Part shown: one piece after another, positions 54,717 to 63,373 of the stretch
Layout of the letters: every line of letters begins with the position of its first letter
Position numbering within the stretch: position 1 is the stretch's first letter
Origin: Heliocidaris erythrogramma
Lineage: Eukaryota; Echinodermata; Echinoidea; Camarodonta; Echinometridae
Reading direction: 5' to 3'
NCBI GenBank assembly: GCA_025617745.1
Contig: CM046853.1
Span: 60,518,611 to 60,582,610 of the forward strand
Length of the DNA stretch: 64,000 nucleotides
The notes under the pieces: generated by a model
Told to the model about the DNA's origin: nothing
What the model saw: only the letters and a program-made list of their open reading frames with translations
Databases searched by the model: none
Position numbers and translations under genes: made by a program

Positions 54717-54931
54717 GTTGTTTACATCTAGCTAGCTAGCTAGCTACGTACGTACGTACATGTATGCAGCTCAGTCAGCAAGCGCAAAAGCGAGCATCGC
54801 CGCGGCTATTGTTGTACGTACCGTACGCGGTATATGCTCTAAATGCATGCATACAGTGTGCATGCAGCGCATCGATCGCATGCATGAAGCTCAGCTCGGC
54901 TCAGCTAGCTCAGCAAGCTAGCTGTATTAGT
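54717..54931 (-). promoter_or_regulatory. DSTYK 5' flank: palindromic CTAG/ACGT/GCATGC region
   Basis: Directly upstream of the DSTYK ATG is a tetranucleotide run (CTAG)n, then (ACGT)n, then words such as GCATGCAT, ATCGATCG and AGCTAGCT. GC content and CpG are higher than in the surroundings. The 5' UTR and core promoter must start here or in the adjoining element, but no TATA box or initiator can be assigned. Confidence 0.4.
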
Positions 54932-55070
54932 CCATGGGCCAACGTAGACCCCCTCCCCCCTAATTAGGCACAATTTTAGTGATGTTTTCCTGGTACATGT
55001 AGTTAGGACCCTCGGCTATCAGAATCTGCCTGTTTGCCATAGAGTTAGTGGTGGGTGTGGCCACCAGGCC

Positions 55071-55084
55071 GTTACCATGGCAAC
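55071..55084 (+). promoter_or_regulatory. RFX X-box-like motif nearest to DSTYK
   Basis: GTTACCATGGCAAC matches the X-box consensus GTNRCC(0-3N)RGYAAC in both half-sites. It lies about 355 bp upstream of the DSTYK start codon. Binding is a prediction from the known consensus only. Confidence 0.55.
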
Positions 55085-55412
55085 GCATCAAGGAAATATA
55101 GGAATTTACTAATACCTAATATTTTTAATTCAGAAATTTGACTGGTAAGCATCTAAATATAATTATGTATTTTGAGTTTCCTGATTGATTGAAACCAAAT
55201 CTAGGTCATTTGAAGTCACGGTCATGTAAAAAAATGGCCGTTACTATGGAAACGGTACCATAAAAAGTGGATATTTTGGAAAAATATCTAAACTTATCAG
55301 TATAAAATAGAGAGGTGTCTACACAATCTTAGATATATTTCTATGAGCTAGGACCCTCAGCTATCATAGTCTGCCTGTTTTCCTATCATAATTTGCCTGT
55401 TTGACATCAAGA

Positions 55413-56483
55413 TTCTTTATAAACTTAAAGACCTTTTCCCACCAATATTCTGCAAACATTGTATGGTACTTTGATAAACTCAAACATATATTATGGCATT
55501 CTCGCGTGGGGAAATAGCACATTACTTCTTCTTGATAGAATTCTTTACATCCAAAAACGCGCTATAAGAATAGTCAACCGGAAACCATTTCTTGCTCATA
55601 CAAACAAATTATTCTTCTCAAACAAAGTATTCAAAATAACTGAATTGTTTTTGTTCAATGTTGGTGTTTTTATGTATAAATTATCCTCAGACGACCTCCC
55701 TGATGTATTTTCAACCTTGTTCATGAGAAATGATTTTCTCCATACTTATCCAACTCGACAAAGTCACTCCTATCATCTTCCAAGAACAAGAACAGTCTTC
55801 GCCCAGAAAACAATCAAGTATAACGGACCTACATTCTGGAACGAACTTCCAAGTGAACTCATCACTAGCCCTTCACTATACAGTTTTAAAAATAGACTGA
55901 AATCTTTCTTGTTACAAAAATATAACGTTTAATACTATTTATACTTTGCAACCATAATAACATCATTCGTACAATTAAACACCCTTTCACTCATCAGCGT
56001 TCAGGCAGATTTAAGATTTAAGCTGATACTATTTTTTGTTTTTATTAGTCTTCAACCTGTAATAACCGGTTAGATGCTCATTAAATCAAACATGGTACTG
56101 TATTATTATTTTATTTTTAGTAATAATTTGGCAGAATTTGAATTTCAAGTCTACTAAGCATATTGTTATAAGTATATTTGAAATACACTCATTGGTTTAG
56201 GATGCACTCCAGCTCAGTAGGAACCAACTTTCACTTTACAAGCCTTGCTTTTTAGTTGGTTCCTACACATTTCACAGTTTATTTCGGTATGGACTTATAT
56301 ATTTGGTTAAATTATACACTTGATTTGTGCATTGTATACTTTAATGAATATTTTACTATTCTTACCTTGTACTTTATGTATATGCTTGAACTGTACGTGA
56401 AAAATTATTCTTCGTCCAGACGTGACACCTTTGTATATTTTCGTTGTGAAATGTGAAAAATAAATTCAATTCAATTCAATTCA
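55413..56483 (+). mobile_element. 5'-truncated LINE (3' end of ORF2 plus tail) inserted in the satellite
   Basis: Opens in frame with PTNILQTLYGTLINSNIYYG and continues through RAIRIVNRKPFLAHTNKLFF, PTRQSHSYHLPRTRT and GPTFWNELPSELI to a stop after 55932, the usual C-terminal end of CR1/L2/Jockey-type ORF2. The 3' UTR ends AATAAATTCAATTCAATTCA. AAGAT lies on both sides (55408-55412, 56484-56488), and the intact reverse-arm unit near 62570 shows the empty site. Only the last ~170 codons are present, without stops, so it is fairly young. Confidence 0.85.
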
Positions 56484-56571
56484 AAGATGATAGTGGGCGT
56501 GGCCGCTAGGGCCGTTACCATGGTAACAAATAACGAAATACTGGAATTTAGAAAATACCGTATATTTGTCC

Positions 56572-57079
56572 CAGGGGGGTCTGTCCTCATTGGAAGGGGG
56601 TATCATGCGTGACCAAAGACTCACCAAAAGCACCCTAAGCAAGTATTTACGTGGTGCCAAAAAATACACCCTAAATAAGTATGATTACCCGTGAGTTGGG
56701 TAATTTGCTACCCTAAGTAAGTAATAATTGTTTGTAACCGTTTATGCGCGCAAACGTGCGAAACGGGAGCAAATTTGACCTGGCCCACGGCCTCGGAACT
56801 TTGGTGGATATTTTTGATATATAATTCACGGGATACTTCAGCTAAAATGGTGATTTTAACTTGTTCTAGTGTTGAATGACCCTAACTACGTAAGCTGATT
56901 TATTTATGACCCTTGCGTAATTCATCACTTTGAAAAAAATACCCTTTTTCTTGATTTTTGGTGATTTTGAGACCCTATTCACGTTACGTACGTAACGTGC
57001 CTGATCGTGAAAAACAACCCTTTTTACGTGATTTTTTGGTCACGCATGATACCCCCTTGGAATGAGGACAGACCCCCTG
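56572..57079. mobile_element. 508-bp MITE, CAGGGGGTCTGTCCTCATT ends
   Basis: Left CAGGGGGGTCTGTCCTCATT and right AATGAGGACAGACCCCCTG are inverted, differing by one G. Just inside, GGGGGTATCATGCGTGACCA pairs with TGGTCACGCATGATACCCCC nearly exactly, extending the inverted repeats beyond 40 bp. Contains CACCCTAAGCAAGTA-type repeats; no coding. Confidence 0.8.
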
Positions 57080-57685
57080 TCATTTAACAGCATAACATAT
57101 TATGGTAAGGACTCTAATATATATGTATTTCAAGCTGCCCCACGGATTCCAAACACAATCTGAGTCATTTGAAGTCATAGACGTGTAAAAAGGGCCGTTG
57201 CTATGTAAACGGTCCCACAAAATGCTGATATTTGTGGGAAATAATTATGATTTATCAATAGAAAATAGAAAACAACTGTCTGCACAATCTTAAATCATGT
57301 TTTTCTGTTAGCTATACCCTCAACTCTCATATTCTTCCTATTTTACATAAAGTTGGTAGTGGGCGTGACCACTAGGGTTGTTACCATGGTAACACACCAA
57401 GGAATGGATTTTTAGAACATAACATATATCTGTAATTTAATATCACAAAACCAAATTGTAACCATCTAATTATATGTATTTTGGGGTGCCCGTTTGATTG
57501 CAAGCAAAATCTGCGTCATTGGAAGTCACCGTCATGTCAAAACATGGTTGTTGCCATAGAAACGTTATGGTGAATTAATAACTATTTGTGGAAAAATATG
57601 TAACTATTCAATGCACTTTATAAAGTAAGGGTCTCCACAACCTGAAATGATGTTTTCCCCTGTTAGCTAGGACCCTGGATATCAT

Positions 57686-59187
57686 CCGTGGGGGGGTGGG
57701 TACTCATATAGTGTGCAGTGGGTATGTGTCGCCCAGAAGACCCCCATTTTTACACTCAAATTTCCGTTCCAAAGCATACCATTTTTTTCTTGTTGAGAAA
57801 AAGAAGAGAGAAAGCCGTTCCAAAGCACCGCTTTTTTTTTCGTTCCGTCGTTCCGGCCGATCCCCCGCGCGCGCATTTCCGTTTTACACCGTTGCCTAGG
57901 CATTTTCGCGAAAAAATCCAAGAAGTGCGCTGGTGAAAGAGTCTAAGTCGTCAGCGCCCCCAGTGAGGTCTAGCATGCACAGCATCTGCACAGACAGCAA
58001 AGATATGCATTACAGTAACTGTACAGTAGCTACACTTCATCTTGTGCGCAAACGAGCTAAAAGAAATATATAAGGAACGATAAAAGCAAAAAAATATATA
58101 AGAGAGACAAGGGGGATGAAAGGAAAAGCAAAACAGAAGGAAGCGTGAAAGGGCCGTCTTCTTTGTTTTTTTTTTTCTTTCATGCTGATGAGGCTTCCTC
58201 TTCTCTAATTGGCGCACAAAGAGTTACAGCTAGATACGCAGTTATAGTTATAGTTATAGTTGTAGCAAATATAACTATATTTCTTCAAATCAATTATTAT
58301 TATTCTTATTATTCTTATCTTCTCGATATTAGTAAAACACCTAAATTTTCTTTTAAATGTATGATCCTGGGCTATAATTATTATACGTATATTCCTCGTC
58401 CCCCACCCCTTCTGTTTAATTCCCTCGCTTTCTGGTAACACTGTTTCAGCTTAGCTGCCTTTCAGCTACATTTTAAAATTCTTTTACCTTGCAATGCAAC
58501 ATGAATTAACTCTAATGTTATTCTTTATCGCCATATAGACAATCCGAGACAGTAGACCAGTGCAGTAGACCCTATAGTACACGTACACATACACCCGATC
58601 GCCGCAAACATGCAGAGTAGGAGTACGTGTGTACATTCGATTTCATACTTCGCGCGTGCAGAGCAAGCTCGAGCTCATAGCGCATGAAGCGAGCTGAAAC
58701 CTAGACTTTGAAACCAGCACGTTCGAAGCGATTAATCGAAAAAATGCCTAGGCAACGGTGTAAAACGGAAACGCGCGCCCCGCGCGGGCCCGTTTCGCTT
58801 CGAAGACACCATAAACTTGCCACACACAACGTATTTAGCGAATGGGAGCTTGTAATTGTGTGTGGGAACCAGGGTAGCGTTTCATCAAACAGTCAGGTGC
58901 GGGTTCGCCGAGATCCCATTGAAACGCGTGTATTAAATTAACATGCGTTTCAATAGGATGTCGGCGAACTTGTGCTTGTGACGGTTTGGTGAAACGATGC
59001 CCAGTTCCGTAGCATCATTATATATTGTAATCCAGTTCCAAAGAGCCCTGTTTTAAAAAATGTTAGTATATAGTTCCGAAGACCATCCTTTTTCATGATA
59101 CGCTCGTTCCGAAGCCCCCTTTTTTGTCTTGCGGGCGGCACATATTATACCCACCACTTTTTGGGTCGAGTGCCCCCCCCCCCCCGA
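57686..59187. mobile_element. 1.5-kb foldback element with 9-bp target duplication
   Basis: GGATATCAT lies immediately outside both ends (57677-57685, 59188-59196). Imperfect inverted ends of about 55 bp: GGTGGGTACTCATATAGTGT and beyond against the complement of GTGCCGCCC...CACCAC; they include G/C runs. Long internal arms include GCCTAGGCAACGGTGTAAAA (58747-58766) and its complement (57881-57900). No transposase. An 8-9-bp duplication with long ends fits Mutator- or hAT-type elements. A MITE is nested at 58872-59002. Confidence 0.75.
58872..59002. mobile_element. 131-bp MITE nested in the foldback element
   Basis: Imperfect ends GGGTAGCGTTTCATCAAAC and GTTTGGTGAAACGATGCCC. The middle is a strong inverted repeat: TCGCCGA...CCCATTGAAACGCGTG pairs with CATGCGTTTCAATAGG...TCGGCGA. 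The GCGTTTCATCAA end resembles the GGGGAGCGTTTCATCAAG family but the interior differs. Confidence 0.65.
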
Positions 59188-59640
59188 GGATATCATATCC
59201 TCCCGGACTGCCACAAAGTTGGATGTCGGGCGACCACTCGGGCTGTTACCATGGTAATAACATAGGATATAACATAATTTATATGTATAATTCAACAACG
59301 TGAAAATACTTAGTAGGCATTACATCTATTTCAAGCAGCCCTTTTGAGTGCAATTTTTTTTTTTTTCAAGGTCACAGTCAGGTAAAACAATGATAATTCT
59401 TATTATCCGTTTGGTCTCAAACTGACGCCGATATGGTGGGTGTGAGCACCAGCCCCATTACTATGGCAACGCACCATTAAAATATTGGAAATTGTTTGAA
59501 AATGACATCTATTTAACAATAGAAAACACAAAATATTGGTCTTGATATATTATCATAAACTGCCTGACTTATTTCAGTCATAATCCGAATCACTTAAGGC
59601 CATAGTAATGTCAAAACAGGGTTGTTGCCATGGTAATATT

Positions 59641-60302
59641 ATTATGAAAATTGAGAAATTGAAAAAAAAGGAGACAGATTTTTGTTATTACACAGGAGCA
59701 GTTATGTTGCAAATACATTTTCTAACTGTTCGCCGTGTTCGGATAGCTCCAGCAAGATGTGGGTGTCGATGTGGGGGACCGTTGCAGTAACAATTAACAG
59801 CTGATCCTAACTGGTTAGCTGTACTTTGAGTAGTTATGCTTCCACCTATGTGTCTTGGCGTTGGCAGAGAGGCAAACTGGCAATGGAGGCTTAAATAGCT
59901 ATTCATTATGCAACATCTTATCCATTGCGTACAGGTAAATGGACATGTACCGCAATGACATCATTTTTTTTCTCAAAGTGGCAGCCCCATGGGATAATAT
60001 CTAGCAAGAAATCTGCAAACTTTAGAGAGACTGTTCTCCTTACTGAGTAATCAAATCAGTGTATTTTCCTTTTGAACAGGGTGACAATTTTCCACATTCT
60101 TATCAGCTAATGTATGTTGAGTTTCATTCTCCTTTTAGATGGATTAACTAACCTCAGTCACAGAACCTTTAACGTATTCATAAGATGATAAACTTGTCGG
60201 TCTATAGCTAAACCTGTCTACTTGAAATAAATCTGAGGACATTGGAATAGAATTTAGCAATTTTTCCCTAATCCTGCCCATAAGAAATCTGCATATCATT
60301 AA
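59641..60302. other. Unassigned sequence between satellite and Kolobok-like element
   Basis: AT-rich, with no X-box unit recognisable. GAGTTTCATTCTCCTTTTA near 60120 resembles the end of the palindrome at 36601-37756, perhaps a lone terminus. Confidence 0.4.
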
Positions 60303-60988
60303 AGGTTTACTAAATTAGAGAGAAAATGGGTGCTCTTTCCATGTAGTTTTGCCTTCTAATCACGAATCTGCCAATCGATTGTCCAAAATTTAAATTATTA
60401 GGTTTTGGGACCGTTCCTCAAAACTCGTGAGCTGATTGGCTAACCCCCAAGTGACGTATGAAAAGTAAGAGGCACAAGATCTGCAGGCTGCAGCATATAA
60501 TACTGTACACAGAACGCGGTATTTGACCCCTCTGTTCAATCGACAATTTATGAAAAAAGGAAATTAATCAATATAATCTTAGGAGTGAATAATCATTAGC
60601 AATATATTTTCTACAAGATCAGAAAACGCTTTTGCCCAAATATACAGCTCTTGTTTTGTTTTTAGCTTTTCTTTTGAACAATGTTCTCATCCATCTGAGC
60701 TAGCCGAACGAAAGTTTTGCATTGGTCATAAACGCGTGCACAGCCGTTTTATGCGTCTGTATATAATTATGTACAGTGTCCTATCTTTAGTACGGCAGTG
60801 ACTATGTTCCCCTCGTACATAGCGACTGGTGAACGCTTTTGTTTTGTTTATTTCACACGGCTTCTTTTTTTTTTTACTTCGCTTTACATAGTACGTTTGT
60901 ACTGACTTAGATTTTGGCTGAATTCGAGTAACTTATATAGAGAGAGGAAAAGTGCCCGCGATTCCGAGTTGGAGGACTTTTCTGAGCC

Positions 60989-61270
60989 ATGCAGATACGA
61001 AGTCTGATTTATCAAATGATTTATCAGACACTGAAGGCAAAGAAGCTCGAGTGGCAAGGGGAAATTCGACCATATTATATGTTTGAACCCCTCGCAGAAT
61101 ACGGTGAAGGGCCGTGGGTGAAGTAGACCGAAAATTCTGTCTCTCGTTCGTTAGGTCGTCTTAGCTAACGAACGAGAGACAGAATTTTCGGTCTACGGGT
61201 GAAGCTGCTGCAGCTGCTGTCGTTGAAAAACAGATTGGAAGACTTGACTCCAAGTCTGATCGTTGGAATA
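60989..61270 (+). pseudogene. P2X7-like transposon protein fragment
   Basis: In one frame from ATG 60989 the translation contains LEWQGEIRPYYMFEPLAEYG, recalling the 'xxPYMFEP' stretch of echinoderm and cnidarian P2X7-like proteins. A second frame upstream gives an acidic DLSNDLSDTEGKEA typical of the same leader. The 74-bp hairpin at 61123-61196 interrupts the frame and supplies a TAG at its border. After it, AAVVEKQIGRLDSKSDRWNS continues. Broken. Confidence 0.45.
61123..61196. mobile_element. 74-bp perfect hairpin with GGGTGAA on both sides (tiny MITE)
   Basis: Arms of 31 bp (61123-61153 and 61166-61196) are exact complements, starting GTAGACCGAAAATTCTGTCT, with a 12-nt loop. GGGTGAA precedes (61116-61122) and follows (61197-61203). 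The flanking reading frame makes sense when the hairpin and one GGGTGAA are disregarded, so this is a recent insertion. Confidence 0.8.
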
Positions 61271-61329
61271 GCTGAATCTTTTAGCTAGCTTATCCTTCTC
61301 TTCATGTCAAATTCTGAATACAGGCCAGG

Positions 61330-61490
61330 ATCCTCAAATCATCTTCAGCAAAGTGATCGCTGCAGATTGTACTCCACTCACTTGGCCAGCCCTTGCCACT
61401 CTGCCCGCGTGAGCTTTACCTTTGCGACCCACAATTTCCGTAGATTTTCATCTTTAGGAAAATGATGTAGGCTTACACCATCTTTATAGG
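61330..61490 (-). pseudogene. THAP-domain fragment
   Basis: DGVSLHHFPKDENLRKLWVA matches the THAP core (x-S-x-H-x-F-P-x-D...R-x-x-W). After a frame change, GWPSEWSTICSDHFAEDD matches the C-terminal C-x-x-H part (ICSxHF). The first cysteine pair is not visible upstream. Broken copy; part of the Kolobok-like element. Confidence 0.6.
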
Positions 61491-61744
61491 GGTCTTGCTA
61501 CAGGTTAGTGGAATATTTTCCCTTACTTTTCATGCGTCACAGATCACGTGATCACGATGTCGCTTCGATGAGTTTTTTTAGGGGCGGGGCTTATGACTGT
61601 GTAAATCAGCAAAAATGTACTTTTCAAATGATTATAAAATATGACTGAATGCATAAAAAATTGTGTGATGGATATTTTTTGGCTCCTGATGACACCTTCC
61701 TACGAAAAATGGGCAATTATTTTTTTATTTTAGTGACCCTTTAA

Positions 61745-62285
61745 GGATTAACATCATGACCAAGGTGGTCTAGGATTTGGACTTCATCAGAAACAAGGCC
61801 AAATAATTGAACTTTTGGGTGCCTCATAATAGCTCAAGTCCAGGACTAAAGTGCTGATACCTGCCTAGAGTTTTTTATATTTCGCTAGAAGGTATTCATA
61901 AGAGCCACTAGCTGAGAAGGCCTGTGGTGCAATTGCAGCTCAGCATTCTCATGACTTGCATGATTGGGGTACATGTATATTAGCCATGGACTTGATGTGT
62001 TGGGGATCATAAGACCTATACGTTTACATATTGGTTGCCCTTACAGGTACGCTGCAGTTCTCTTGGCTTTAGAGGAGATATGGCCAATAGTTTGTGAGAT
62101 GGTTCCTCTAATACTATCTTGCCTTAAGCATGGTTGGATAAAGGATGGGCGTAGCAGAGTTTAATGTTGTGAAATTAGTGAACACCAGTGGGTTTTTCTA
62201 TATACCTTTTACAGCTTTGCGTTCTGCAGCCGCTTACTAGAACTGAGTATTCTCTTGTCAAAACTTCCTAAACGTCCTAACTAAC
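61745..62285. other. Unassigned sequence between Kolobok-like element and right arm
   Basis: No unit of the satellite or transposon end recognised. The single longer open frame (61964-62164, plus) shows no domain. Confidence 0.4.
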
Positions 62286-63311
62286 AGAAAAACATGATTT
62301 AAGATTGTGCAGACAGTTGTTTTCTATTTTGTATTGATAAATCATAGATATTTTCCACAAATATCAGCATTTTGTGGGACCATTTCCATAGCAACGGCCC
62401 TTTTTTTTACACGCCCATGACTTCAAATGACTCAGATTGTGCTAGGAATCAATGGGGCAGCTTGAAATACATAACAGTCCTTACCATATACGGTATTTTC
62501 TAAATTCCAGTATTTCGTTATGTGTTACCATGGTAACGGCCCTAGCGGCCACACCAACCATCATCTTGATGTCAAACAGGCAAATTATGATAGCTGAGGG
62601 TCATAACTAATATAAAAACATTATCAAAGACTGTGCAGAGTCCCTTTTCGTTCTATTTTGTAATGGTTAGTTATAGATTTTTTCACAAATAACAGCCTTT
62701 TGTAGGACCGTTTCCATAGCAACGGCCTTTTTTGACACGTCCATGACTTTAAATGGCTCAGATTGTGATTGCAATCTATCAGGCAGCTTGAAATACACAT
62801 AATGGGATGCTTACCATATATCTTATAGCTATTGAATTACATAGATACAGATACAGTATTTTCTAAGATTCCAGTATTTTTGATGTGTTACCATAGTAAC
62901 AGCCCTAGAGGCCACACCCACCACCAACTGTACATCAAATAGGCAGATTATGATAGCTGAGGGTCCTAGCTAATAGAAAAACATACTTTAGGCTTGTGCA
63001 TACACCTTTTGGCTATTTCATATTTATAAGTTTAGAAAGTTGTCAAAAATACCCGCTTTTTATGGTACCGTTTCCATAGTAGCGACCATTTTTTTGACAT
63101 GATCTTGACTTTAAATGACTCTGATTATGGTTGCAATCGATTGGGAACCTTAAAATACATTAGGATGCTTACCAAGTATGTTAAGATTTGTGAATTGGAT
63201 ATGACTTTTCCTAAAATTCAATGTTTTCTTGATCCTTTATGGCAAACAAGCAGATTGTGATAGCTGAGGGTCCTAACTAACAGAAAAACATCATTTAAAA
63301 TTGTGCCTAAG

Positions 63312-63312
<1 letters not shown>
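62286..63312 (-). repeat. Right arm: three tandem X-box units in opposite orientation
   Basis: Anchors GCTGAGGGTC(C/A)TA(A/G)CTA near 62602, 62958 and 63262 give 356- and 304-bp units. X-box-like sites are 62382-62395, 62524-62537, 62710-62723, 62887-62900 and 63070-63083. The last unit lacks the segment with the GGCC/GTTACC site that the left-arm counterpart has. A 33-base G run (63313-63345) separates the arm from the outer border. Confidence 0.75.
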
Positions 63313-63347
<35 letters not shown>

Positions 63348-63373
63348 CTTTTCGGTTACTGGCCCATGGACTA

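What the first reader, a model, noticed from the sequence alone, without database searches (positions are those of the whole stretch)
54973..63312. Satellite whose unit carries two RFX X-box-like motifs at nucleosome-like spacing
At least 14 near-palindromic sites of the type GTTACCATGGTAAC or GTTGCCATGGAAAC are spread over the tandem units on both arms. Within and between units, measured start-to-start gaps are 169, 183, 170, 186, 177 and 183 bp. While the rest of the unit has diverged, both half-sites (GTTRCC, RGYAAC) are largely kept. The motif fits the published X-box consensus for RFX/DAF-19 factors. A repeat that places two potential RFX sites per ~350 bp, about one nucleosome apart, could be a mobile cluster of regulatory sites, a nucleosome-phasing array, or simply a palindrome kept by chance. 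The preservation, functional or not, is worth testing.
Basis: partly seen in the sequence, partly recalled or inferred. Interest (0 to 1): 0.8.

Follow-up and report, generated by a model that had tools for sequence, protein, structure and literature searches.

The report
RFX-type switch motif in transposon repeats
The "satellite" is one copy of a mobile DNA element from an echinoderm (probably a sea urchin) whose repeats keep a 14-letter palindrome matching the binding site of the cilia and sperm regulator RFX, and other, apparently unrelated mobile elements in the same genome carry that palindrome too; the genome holds it about ten thousand times.

Summary
The sites are real: 14 in repeat DNA, with all the stated spacings; about 3 chance matches are expected in the whole window. 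But this is no free satellite. Window 54928-63373 is one 8.4-kb copy of a dispersed TIR (foldback-like) transposon, family A, whose arms consist of ~355-bp units with two sites each. GTTRCCATGGYAAC occurs 10,252 times in the 1.06-Gb genome (6 for the reversed pattern). Other carriers: a diverged sister TIR family (F) and two HINE-like families (B, C; ~160-bp monomers), related to each other but not detectably to A outside the motif. The conservation test splits. Between A units the two motifs are the best-kept 14-bp windows (0.95 vs 0.76); between A and F they are the best three (0.91-0.98 vs 0.53; 0 of 355 shifts). In 11 A copies picked by a distant anchor the motif decays like the rest (2.6% vs 3.2%, P=0.66); in B it is unremarkable. 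Constraint thus seems to act on the element while mobile. Sites fit published RFX consensuses; an RFX domain exon is 56/61 identical to human RFX1. Best reading (inferred, no binding data): a host RFX landing site that helps the element mobilise. Nucleosome phasing is not supported.

The parts
54928..63373 (.). Family A transposon copy, from TA to TA, 8446 bp with later insertions (an uninterrupted copy on C12 is about 6.19 kb)
   Evidence: End sequences TAGTCCATGGGCC...GGCCCATGGACTA; 28 of 30 fetched loci show ...GGCCCATGGAC-TA followed by different flanks; 388 places of the right terminus genome-wide, up to 3 mismatches
54930..57680 (+). Left terminal inverted repeat: tandem ~355-bp units, interrupted by two insertions
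   Evidence: Inverted repeats; in copy E the arms are about 1.5 kb and 85.5% identical
62270..63371 (-). Right terminal inverted repeat: ~355-bp units and terminus with G run
   Evidence: unit alignment
55071..55084 (+). X1 site GTTACCATGGCAAC
55240..55253 (+). X2 site GTTACTATGGAAAC
56514..56527 (+). X1 site GTTACCATGGTAAC
57197..57210 (+). X2 site GTTGCTATGTAAAC (changed copy)
57380..57393 (+). X1 site GTTACCATGGTAAC
57550..57563 (+). X2 site GTTGCCATAGAAAC
59245..59258 (+). Inner X-box-like site GTTACCATGGTAAT
59457..59470 (+). Inner X-box-like site ATTACTATGGCAAC
59624..59637 (+). Inner X-box-like site GTTGCCATGGTAAT
62382..62395 (-). X2 site (plus strand ATTTCCATAGCAAC)
62524..62537 (-). 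X1 site (plus strand GTTACCATGGTAAC)
62710..62723 (-). X2 site (plus strand GTTTCCATAGCAAC)
62887..62900 (-). X1 site (plus strand GTTACCATAGTAAC)
63070..63083 (-). X2 site (plus strand GTTTCCATAGTAGC)
59680..62270 (-). Central region with stop-filled frames; partly shared with the uninterrupted copy E
   Evidence: frames; Pfam finds nothing at E<=1 in three read pieces of E's centre
63313..63357 (-). Terminus: G run (33 here; 3 to 33 in 28 loci) then ACCTTTTCGGTT

Best explanation
The repeat is the terminal repeat array of a TIR DNA transposon of an echinoderm. SHOWN: the arms are tandem ~355-bp units, each with two X-box palindromes, sites alternating about 170 and 184 bp apart; the family is dispersed and has near-identical copies; the palindromes change far more slowly than the rest between units and between two diverged TIR families, yet in 11 resident copies sampled by a distant anchor they differ like the rest; HINE-like elements with no detectable relation outside the motif carry the same palindrome once per ~160-bp monomer. 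INFERRED: the palindrome is a landing site for host RFX dimers (RFX1/2/3 type). Arrays of such sites keep the element's ends open or drive its transcription in RFX-rich cells, for example during sperm formation, so that it is copied into the germ line. Selection then acts on which element copies multiply, not on keeping sites at each genomic place.
For: Genome count 10,252 vs 6 reversed control; 2,895 pairs at 146-176 bp period vs 0. X1 and X2 are the top two of all 14-bp windows between the eight units of copy E. A and F are homologous with the motif masked (71.5 and 65.5 vs shuffle maxima 49.5 and 51.5), and the three X-boxes are the top three windows between them (0.976, 0.908, 0.908; next 0.762; 0 of 355 shifts). 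Decay like the rest in 11 A copies. With the motif masked, B and C are homologous (56 vs shuffle maximum 37.5), but none of four B/C-to-A comparisons exceeds its shuffles (best 23.5 vs 27.5); B and C have HINE-like ends where A has TIR/TA ends, so a factor both can use is the simpler account (inference). RFX consensus enrichment. 12 RFX-domain matches, 4 with a stop inside; one exon is 56/61 identical to human RFX1 (1dp7), with one difference in its last 20 residues. Rfx2 knockout male mice are sterile (PMC4745085, abstract start in a search listing).
Against: No binding, chromatin or expression data. A and F alone could be explained by a shared transposase. The central AT is nearly fixed (10,252 of 10,847) although RFX1 tolerates spacers of 0-3. 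In B (89 units) the intact motif is unremarkable (0.629 vs mean 0.593; rank 58 of 132 windows), partly through a T/A subfamily site; in C (52 units) it ranks 5 of 131. X2 in A fits only the looser RFX consensus. In 26 close A copies plus E the motif did differ less than the rest (17/3384 vs 536/39419; 0.0025 of circular shifts; Fisher P 3e-6), which is against purely neutral decay unless it reflects differences between source copies. Other blocks in the unit are also well kept. The 11-copy sample was forced to keep a 17-bp anchor in the 'rest', which lowers that rate slightly (about 3.3% without it, by arithmetic).
Confidence: 0.5

Rival explanations
1. The palindrome is a binding site for the elements' own proteins: subterminal transposase sites spaced along the TIRs in A and F, and by borrowing or common origin in the HINEs.
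For: A and one F copy share terminal sequence (TAGTCCATGGGCC / TAGCCTATGGGCC), and the sites are evenly spaced in both arms; transposons with repeated subterminal sites are known (recalled). Conservation only while mobile is equally expected.
Against: B and C have HINE-like ends, a different mobility route, and no detectable homology to A outside the motif; the site matches a host-factor consensus. No transposase domain was found in the one copy read.
Confidence: 0.22
2. The dyad works as DNA structure (cruciform, replication pause or recombination point) that promotes array growth or transposition.
For: It is a perfect palindrome in many copies; symmetric flank differences occur at some X2 sites (ccG..Cgg vs ctG..Cag). 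Junctions of one bivalve satellite map to its palindrome (PMC5139131, passages).
Against: The letters, not just the symmetry, are conserved: exact match 10,252 vs 6, AT centre in 94.5%. X2 in A is not a perfect palindrome yet is equally conserved.
Confidence: 0.12
3. Nucleosome-phasing array.
For: Spacings of about 156-186 bp are near nucleosome length.
Against: 10-bp WW periodicity of the right arm not significant (0.067 of shuffles); spacing differs between families; monomers of 140-180 bp predominate in oyster HINEs anyway (PMC7492417 passages).
Confidence: 0.06
4. Chance, gene conversion or low mutability explains the conserved motif.
For: 11 resident copies show no excess conservation, and B shows none.
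Against: Equal decay after insertion argues against a mutational cold spot, and the between-family result against chance.
Confidence: 0.05

Closest known systems
Tetris, foldback transposon of Drosophila virilis (PMC4079207, abstract and outline seen)
   Same: DNA transposon with terminal inverted repeats that contain internal tandem repeats (~220 bp there, ~355 bp here); apparently non-autonomous
   Different: Its abstract mentions no factor-binding palindrome; here each unit carries two conserved X-boxes, and no long satellite array derived from it was seen among the loci fetched
Cg_HINE elements of Crassostrea gigas (PMC7492417, passages)
   Same: Families B and C resemble them: subterminal inverted repeats, IR near the left end, microsatellite (clear in B), 140-180-bp tandem array, 3' palindrome (clear in C); some oyster monomers, otherwise dissimilar, are also said to share two conserved segments
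   Different: The letters of those segments are not in the passages read, so whether they include the X-box is unknown; family A is not a HINE
CENP-B box-like motifs shared by different satellites (PMC3694981, search listing; PMC5139131, passages)
   Same: One short protein-binding motif kept in otherwise dissimilar tandem repeats
   Different: The motif here is an RFX-type X-box, in dispersed transposons
RFX X-box of ciliary promoters (PMC3414849, passages)
   Same: GTNRCC-N0-3-RGYAAC / GTTGCCATGGCAAC
   Different: Target genes there typically have a single upstream site; here many sites sit in transposon repeats, with an almost fixed AT centre

Membership tests
X-box (RFX site) | Half-sites GTNRCC and RGYAAC with 0-3 bp spacer | tested here: met
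   5 places in the window element, 8 in copy E; shuffles mean 0.07. X2 sites meet only the looser consensus
X-box (RFX site) | RFX protein with conserved DNA-binding domain in the genome | tested here: met
   12 PF02257 matches; one exon 56/61 identical to human RFX1
X-box (RFX site) | Bound by RFX in cells | not testable with these tools
   No ChIP or accessibility data
Foldback-like TIR DNA transposon (family A) | Long terminal inverted repeats with internal tandem repeats | tested here: met
   Arms about 1.5 kb, 85.5% identical in copy E; units
Foldback-like TIR DNA transposon (family A) | Fixed ends and target-site duplication | tested here: inconclusive
   28 right ends seen in 30 loci, 28 of 28 followed by TA and different flanks; TA on both sides could be a duplication or part of the end; no empty site examined
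Foldback-like TIR DNA transposon (family A) | Transposase | tested here: not met
   No Pfam match in three read pieces of one copy's centre; that copy appears non-autonomous; no autonomous copy was sought
HINE (families B and C) | subTIRs, left IR, microsatellite, 140-180-bp array, 3' palindrome | tested here: met
   B: TACCCCCGCC/GGCGGGGGTA, GGTC repeats; 18 left and 2 right ends seen. C: GTATCCCCCGAAC/GTTCGGGGGATAC, ACTCGGA..TCCGAGT hairpin; 12 left and 6 right ends (a seventh listed right match, L044, is not an end). The 3' hairpin is clear in C and weak in B; the microsatellite clear in B and only short in C
HINE (families B and C) | Autonomous Helentron partner | not tested
   Not searched
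HINE applied to family A | subTIR/palindrome ends instead of TIRs | tested here: not met
   A has TIR ends
Satellite DNA | Long homogeneous tandem arrays | tested here: not met
   About 4 regular units per arm in a dispersed element

The most novel reading that the evidence does not exclude
Mobile elements of two different mobility classes have settled on the same host RFX site as a common control box, so that RFX, the cilia and sperm-flagellum regulator, acts as a shared licence for transposon activity in the echinoderm germ line and seeds about ten thousand potential RFX sites.
Probability: 0.35. Interest if true: 0.82.

Novelty: new variant of a known kind. Interest (0 to 1): 0.62.

Why it matters
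Transposons that carry transcription-factor sites are known (recalled), but a single 14-bp site kept through deep divergence in TIR elements, and present in HINE-like elements not detectably related to them, points to a common host dependency. If RFX is the factor, sea urchins offer a tractable test of whether a cilia and sperm regulator licenses transposon activity, and whether some 10,000 dispersed sites feed into or titrate the ciliary programme. It is also a worked case in which constraint on the mobile element can be told apart from constraint on its resident copies.

Tried and rejected
Rejected: bulk satellite; nucleosome phasing; host-level preservation of sites in resident copies (but, where 26 close copies plus E do show fewer changes in the motif); a common origin of A with B/C (no detectable homology with the motif masked; very old homology cannot be excluded); the 355-bp unit as a proven dimer of a ~177-bp monomer (half-units align 1.4 to 3.8 sd above shuffles, and 1 of 6 exceeds all 300).

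Led nowhere: Rfam on six sources (no match); Pfam on the central region (none); tandem X-box pairs in IMG/VR and in bacterial/archaeal genomes (none). Single-site loci L040, L047, L049 and L140 and repeat D (L041/L043, 96% identical) were not classified.

Caveats on counts: the 24 loci were chosen because they hold an exact motif and come from the first ~4 Mb of one contig (L002 and L003 overlap); they were sorted into families by eye. The B and C samples were chosen by a 16-bp anchor away from the motif on contig C1; 6 of 58 C anchors were dropped for low coverage or identity, and segments cut short by a locus end were skipped uncounted. The 11 A copies (10 on C1, 1 on C2) were picked from the first 100 of 914 anchor places. 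The A-F alignment holds 6 A dimers and 8 F segments; two of these (L132, L138) have a shorter X2-X1 interval of 98 bp, one F locus (L141) lacked a left site and was left out, and L140 is not family F.
Full report
Setting. The window lies in a 1.064-Gb, 26-contig genome. Mitochondrial COX1 reads sensibly with the echinoderm code: AAA gives the Asn and ATA the Ile expected at conserved places (the expected residues are recalled). So it is an echinoderm, probably a sea urchin by recalled COX1 likeness.

The observation. Fifteen approximate sites lie in 55071-63083; one is in a later insertion, 11 are in regular units and 3 in inner, more diverged repeat DNA; all quoted gaps are present. They exceed chance (19 in the window vs 2.97 expected, maximum 7) and fit two published RFX consensuses better than shuffles (consensuses from passages of PMC3414849).

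What carries them. A 731-bp query from the right arm gave 1,167 first-look candidates, of which 40 were scored, the window included; most of these are near 90% identical. In 28 of the 30 fetched loci the sequence runs ...GGCCCATGGAC-TA and then differs (no such end was found in L009 and L011). An uninterrupted copy on contig C12 is about 6.2 kb with ~1.5-kb arms 85.5% identical. The right terminus occurs 388 times with up to 3 mismatches. Of 26 copies aligned to this one over the right arm (the window copy apart), 25 are 97-99% identical to it and one 90%, so the family was active recently. These are the best matches of the search, not a random sample. The window copy is more diverged (rest 5.8%, motif 3.6%) and is interrupted at about 55400-56480, 56566-57090 and 57687-59188, as comparison shows. 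The feature is thus a dispersed, foldback-like TIR transposon, family A, not a free satellite.

The same palindrome elsewhere. GTTRCCATGGYAAC has 10,252 places vs 6 for the reversed pattern; with any centre, 10,847 vs 71. Of 24 sampled loci, 11 are family B, 8 family C, 2 an unclassified repeat, and 3 single sites. B and C have ~160-bp monomers and HINE-like ends (features from PMC7492417, passages). Pairs at 146-176 bp period: 2,895 vs 0. With the motif masked, B and C are homologous to each other (56 vs shuffle maximum 37.5); none of the four comparisons of B or C with A exceeds its shuffles. A further family, F, was found from paired single sites. One F copy has terminal sequences like A's; in most F loci fetched the order X2-X1-X2 is complete, and two tested F loci align to A units with the motif masked (71.5 and 65.5 vs shuffle maxima 49.5 and 51.5).

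The conservation test. Between the eight units of copy E, X1 and X2 are the two best of all 14-bp windows (0.952 each; outside mean 0.759; 0.0028 of circular shifts). Between A and F the three X-boxes are the three best windows (0.976, 0.908, 0.908; next 0.762; outside 0.532; 0 of 355 shifts). After insertion the picture changes: in 11 A copies picked by a distant anchor, motif 11/420 and rest 150/4668 (P 0.66). In 26 close copies plus E, motif 17/3384 and rest 536/39419 (0.0025 of circular shifts; Fisher P 3e-6); that set was chosen for similarity and may include differences between source elements. In B (89 units) the motif is unremarkable (rank 58 of 132 windows); in C (52 units) it ranks 5 of 131, with a gapped stretch lowering the C mean. 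Together: strong constraint over the long life of the TIR lineage, little or none seen on resident copies. Recurrent variation inside the motif is at positions 4, 6, 9 and 11, where the looser RFX consensus allows more than one base; single rows also differ at 2 and 7 (by inspection).

RFX in this genome. Twelve RFX-domain matches, 4 with a stop inside. One exon matches human RFX1 (1dp7) at 56 of 61 residues.

Mechanism. Shown: architecture, dispersal, pattern of conservation, sharing between element types. Inferred: RFX as the factor; benefit through transcription or open chromatin in RFX-rich cells. Germ-line relevance leans on mouse Rfx2 (PMC4745085, abstract start in listing). The main rival is a transposon-encoded protein; for A and F alone the data do not separate the two, and the HINE-like families tip the balance.

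Novelty. I searched for five exact 14-mers (3 papers, all listed; two concern Rfx or cilia genes by title, one appears unrelated) and for combinations of RFX, X-box, satellite DNA, transposable element and Helitron (20 of 118 listed; 15 of 28; 15 of 261). Among the titles and abstract starts listed, none describes an X-box as a shared motif of tandem repeats or HINEs; the lists are capped and the library is open-access only. Tandem repeats inside TIRs (Tetris, PMC4079207, abstract and outline) and inside HINEs (PMC7492417, passages) are known; the conserved RFX-type box across both is what appears new.

Noticed in passing
L132-L139, L141 (one copy C1 8546460-8555693): Sister TIR family F: arm sites 5.4-8.2 kb apart in the four pairs fetched, inverted; ends TAGCCTATGGGCC...GGCCCATAGACTA in the one copy checked; homologous to A but strongly diverged.
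   Followed up: partly
L041 and L043: A ~1.09-kb repeat (96% identical) with one perfect GTTACCATGGTAAC, not tandem; carrier element unknown.
   Followed up: no
window 63313-63345: G run in the family A terminus varies from 3 to 33 among 28 loci; the window copy has the longest.
   Followed up: partly
window 54928-63373 units; alignment: CACGCCCA/CACACCCA (KLF/SP-like, recalled) follows X1, and often X2, at a short distance in A units and is mostly not kept in the F segments aligned (by eye).
   Followed up: no
window 61123-61196: Near-perfect hairpin (gtagaccgaaaattctgtctctcgttcgttag and its complement) in the central region, MITE-like (by eye).
   Followed up: no
window 56575-57077: 55-bp inverted repeats, 89% complementary: a foldback/MITE-like insertion in the left arm.
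   Followed up: partly
window 10943-52250, minus strand: Kinase exon (Pkinase) and a 446-aa upstream ORF without Pfam match that looks like DSTYK (recalled); the transposon sits about 2.7 kb upstream of that ORF.
   Followed up: partly
window 55429-55932: 167-aa open frame resembling the end of a LINE ORF (recalled), followed by an AATTC-type tail; no Pfam match.
   Followed up: partly
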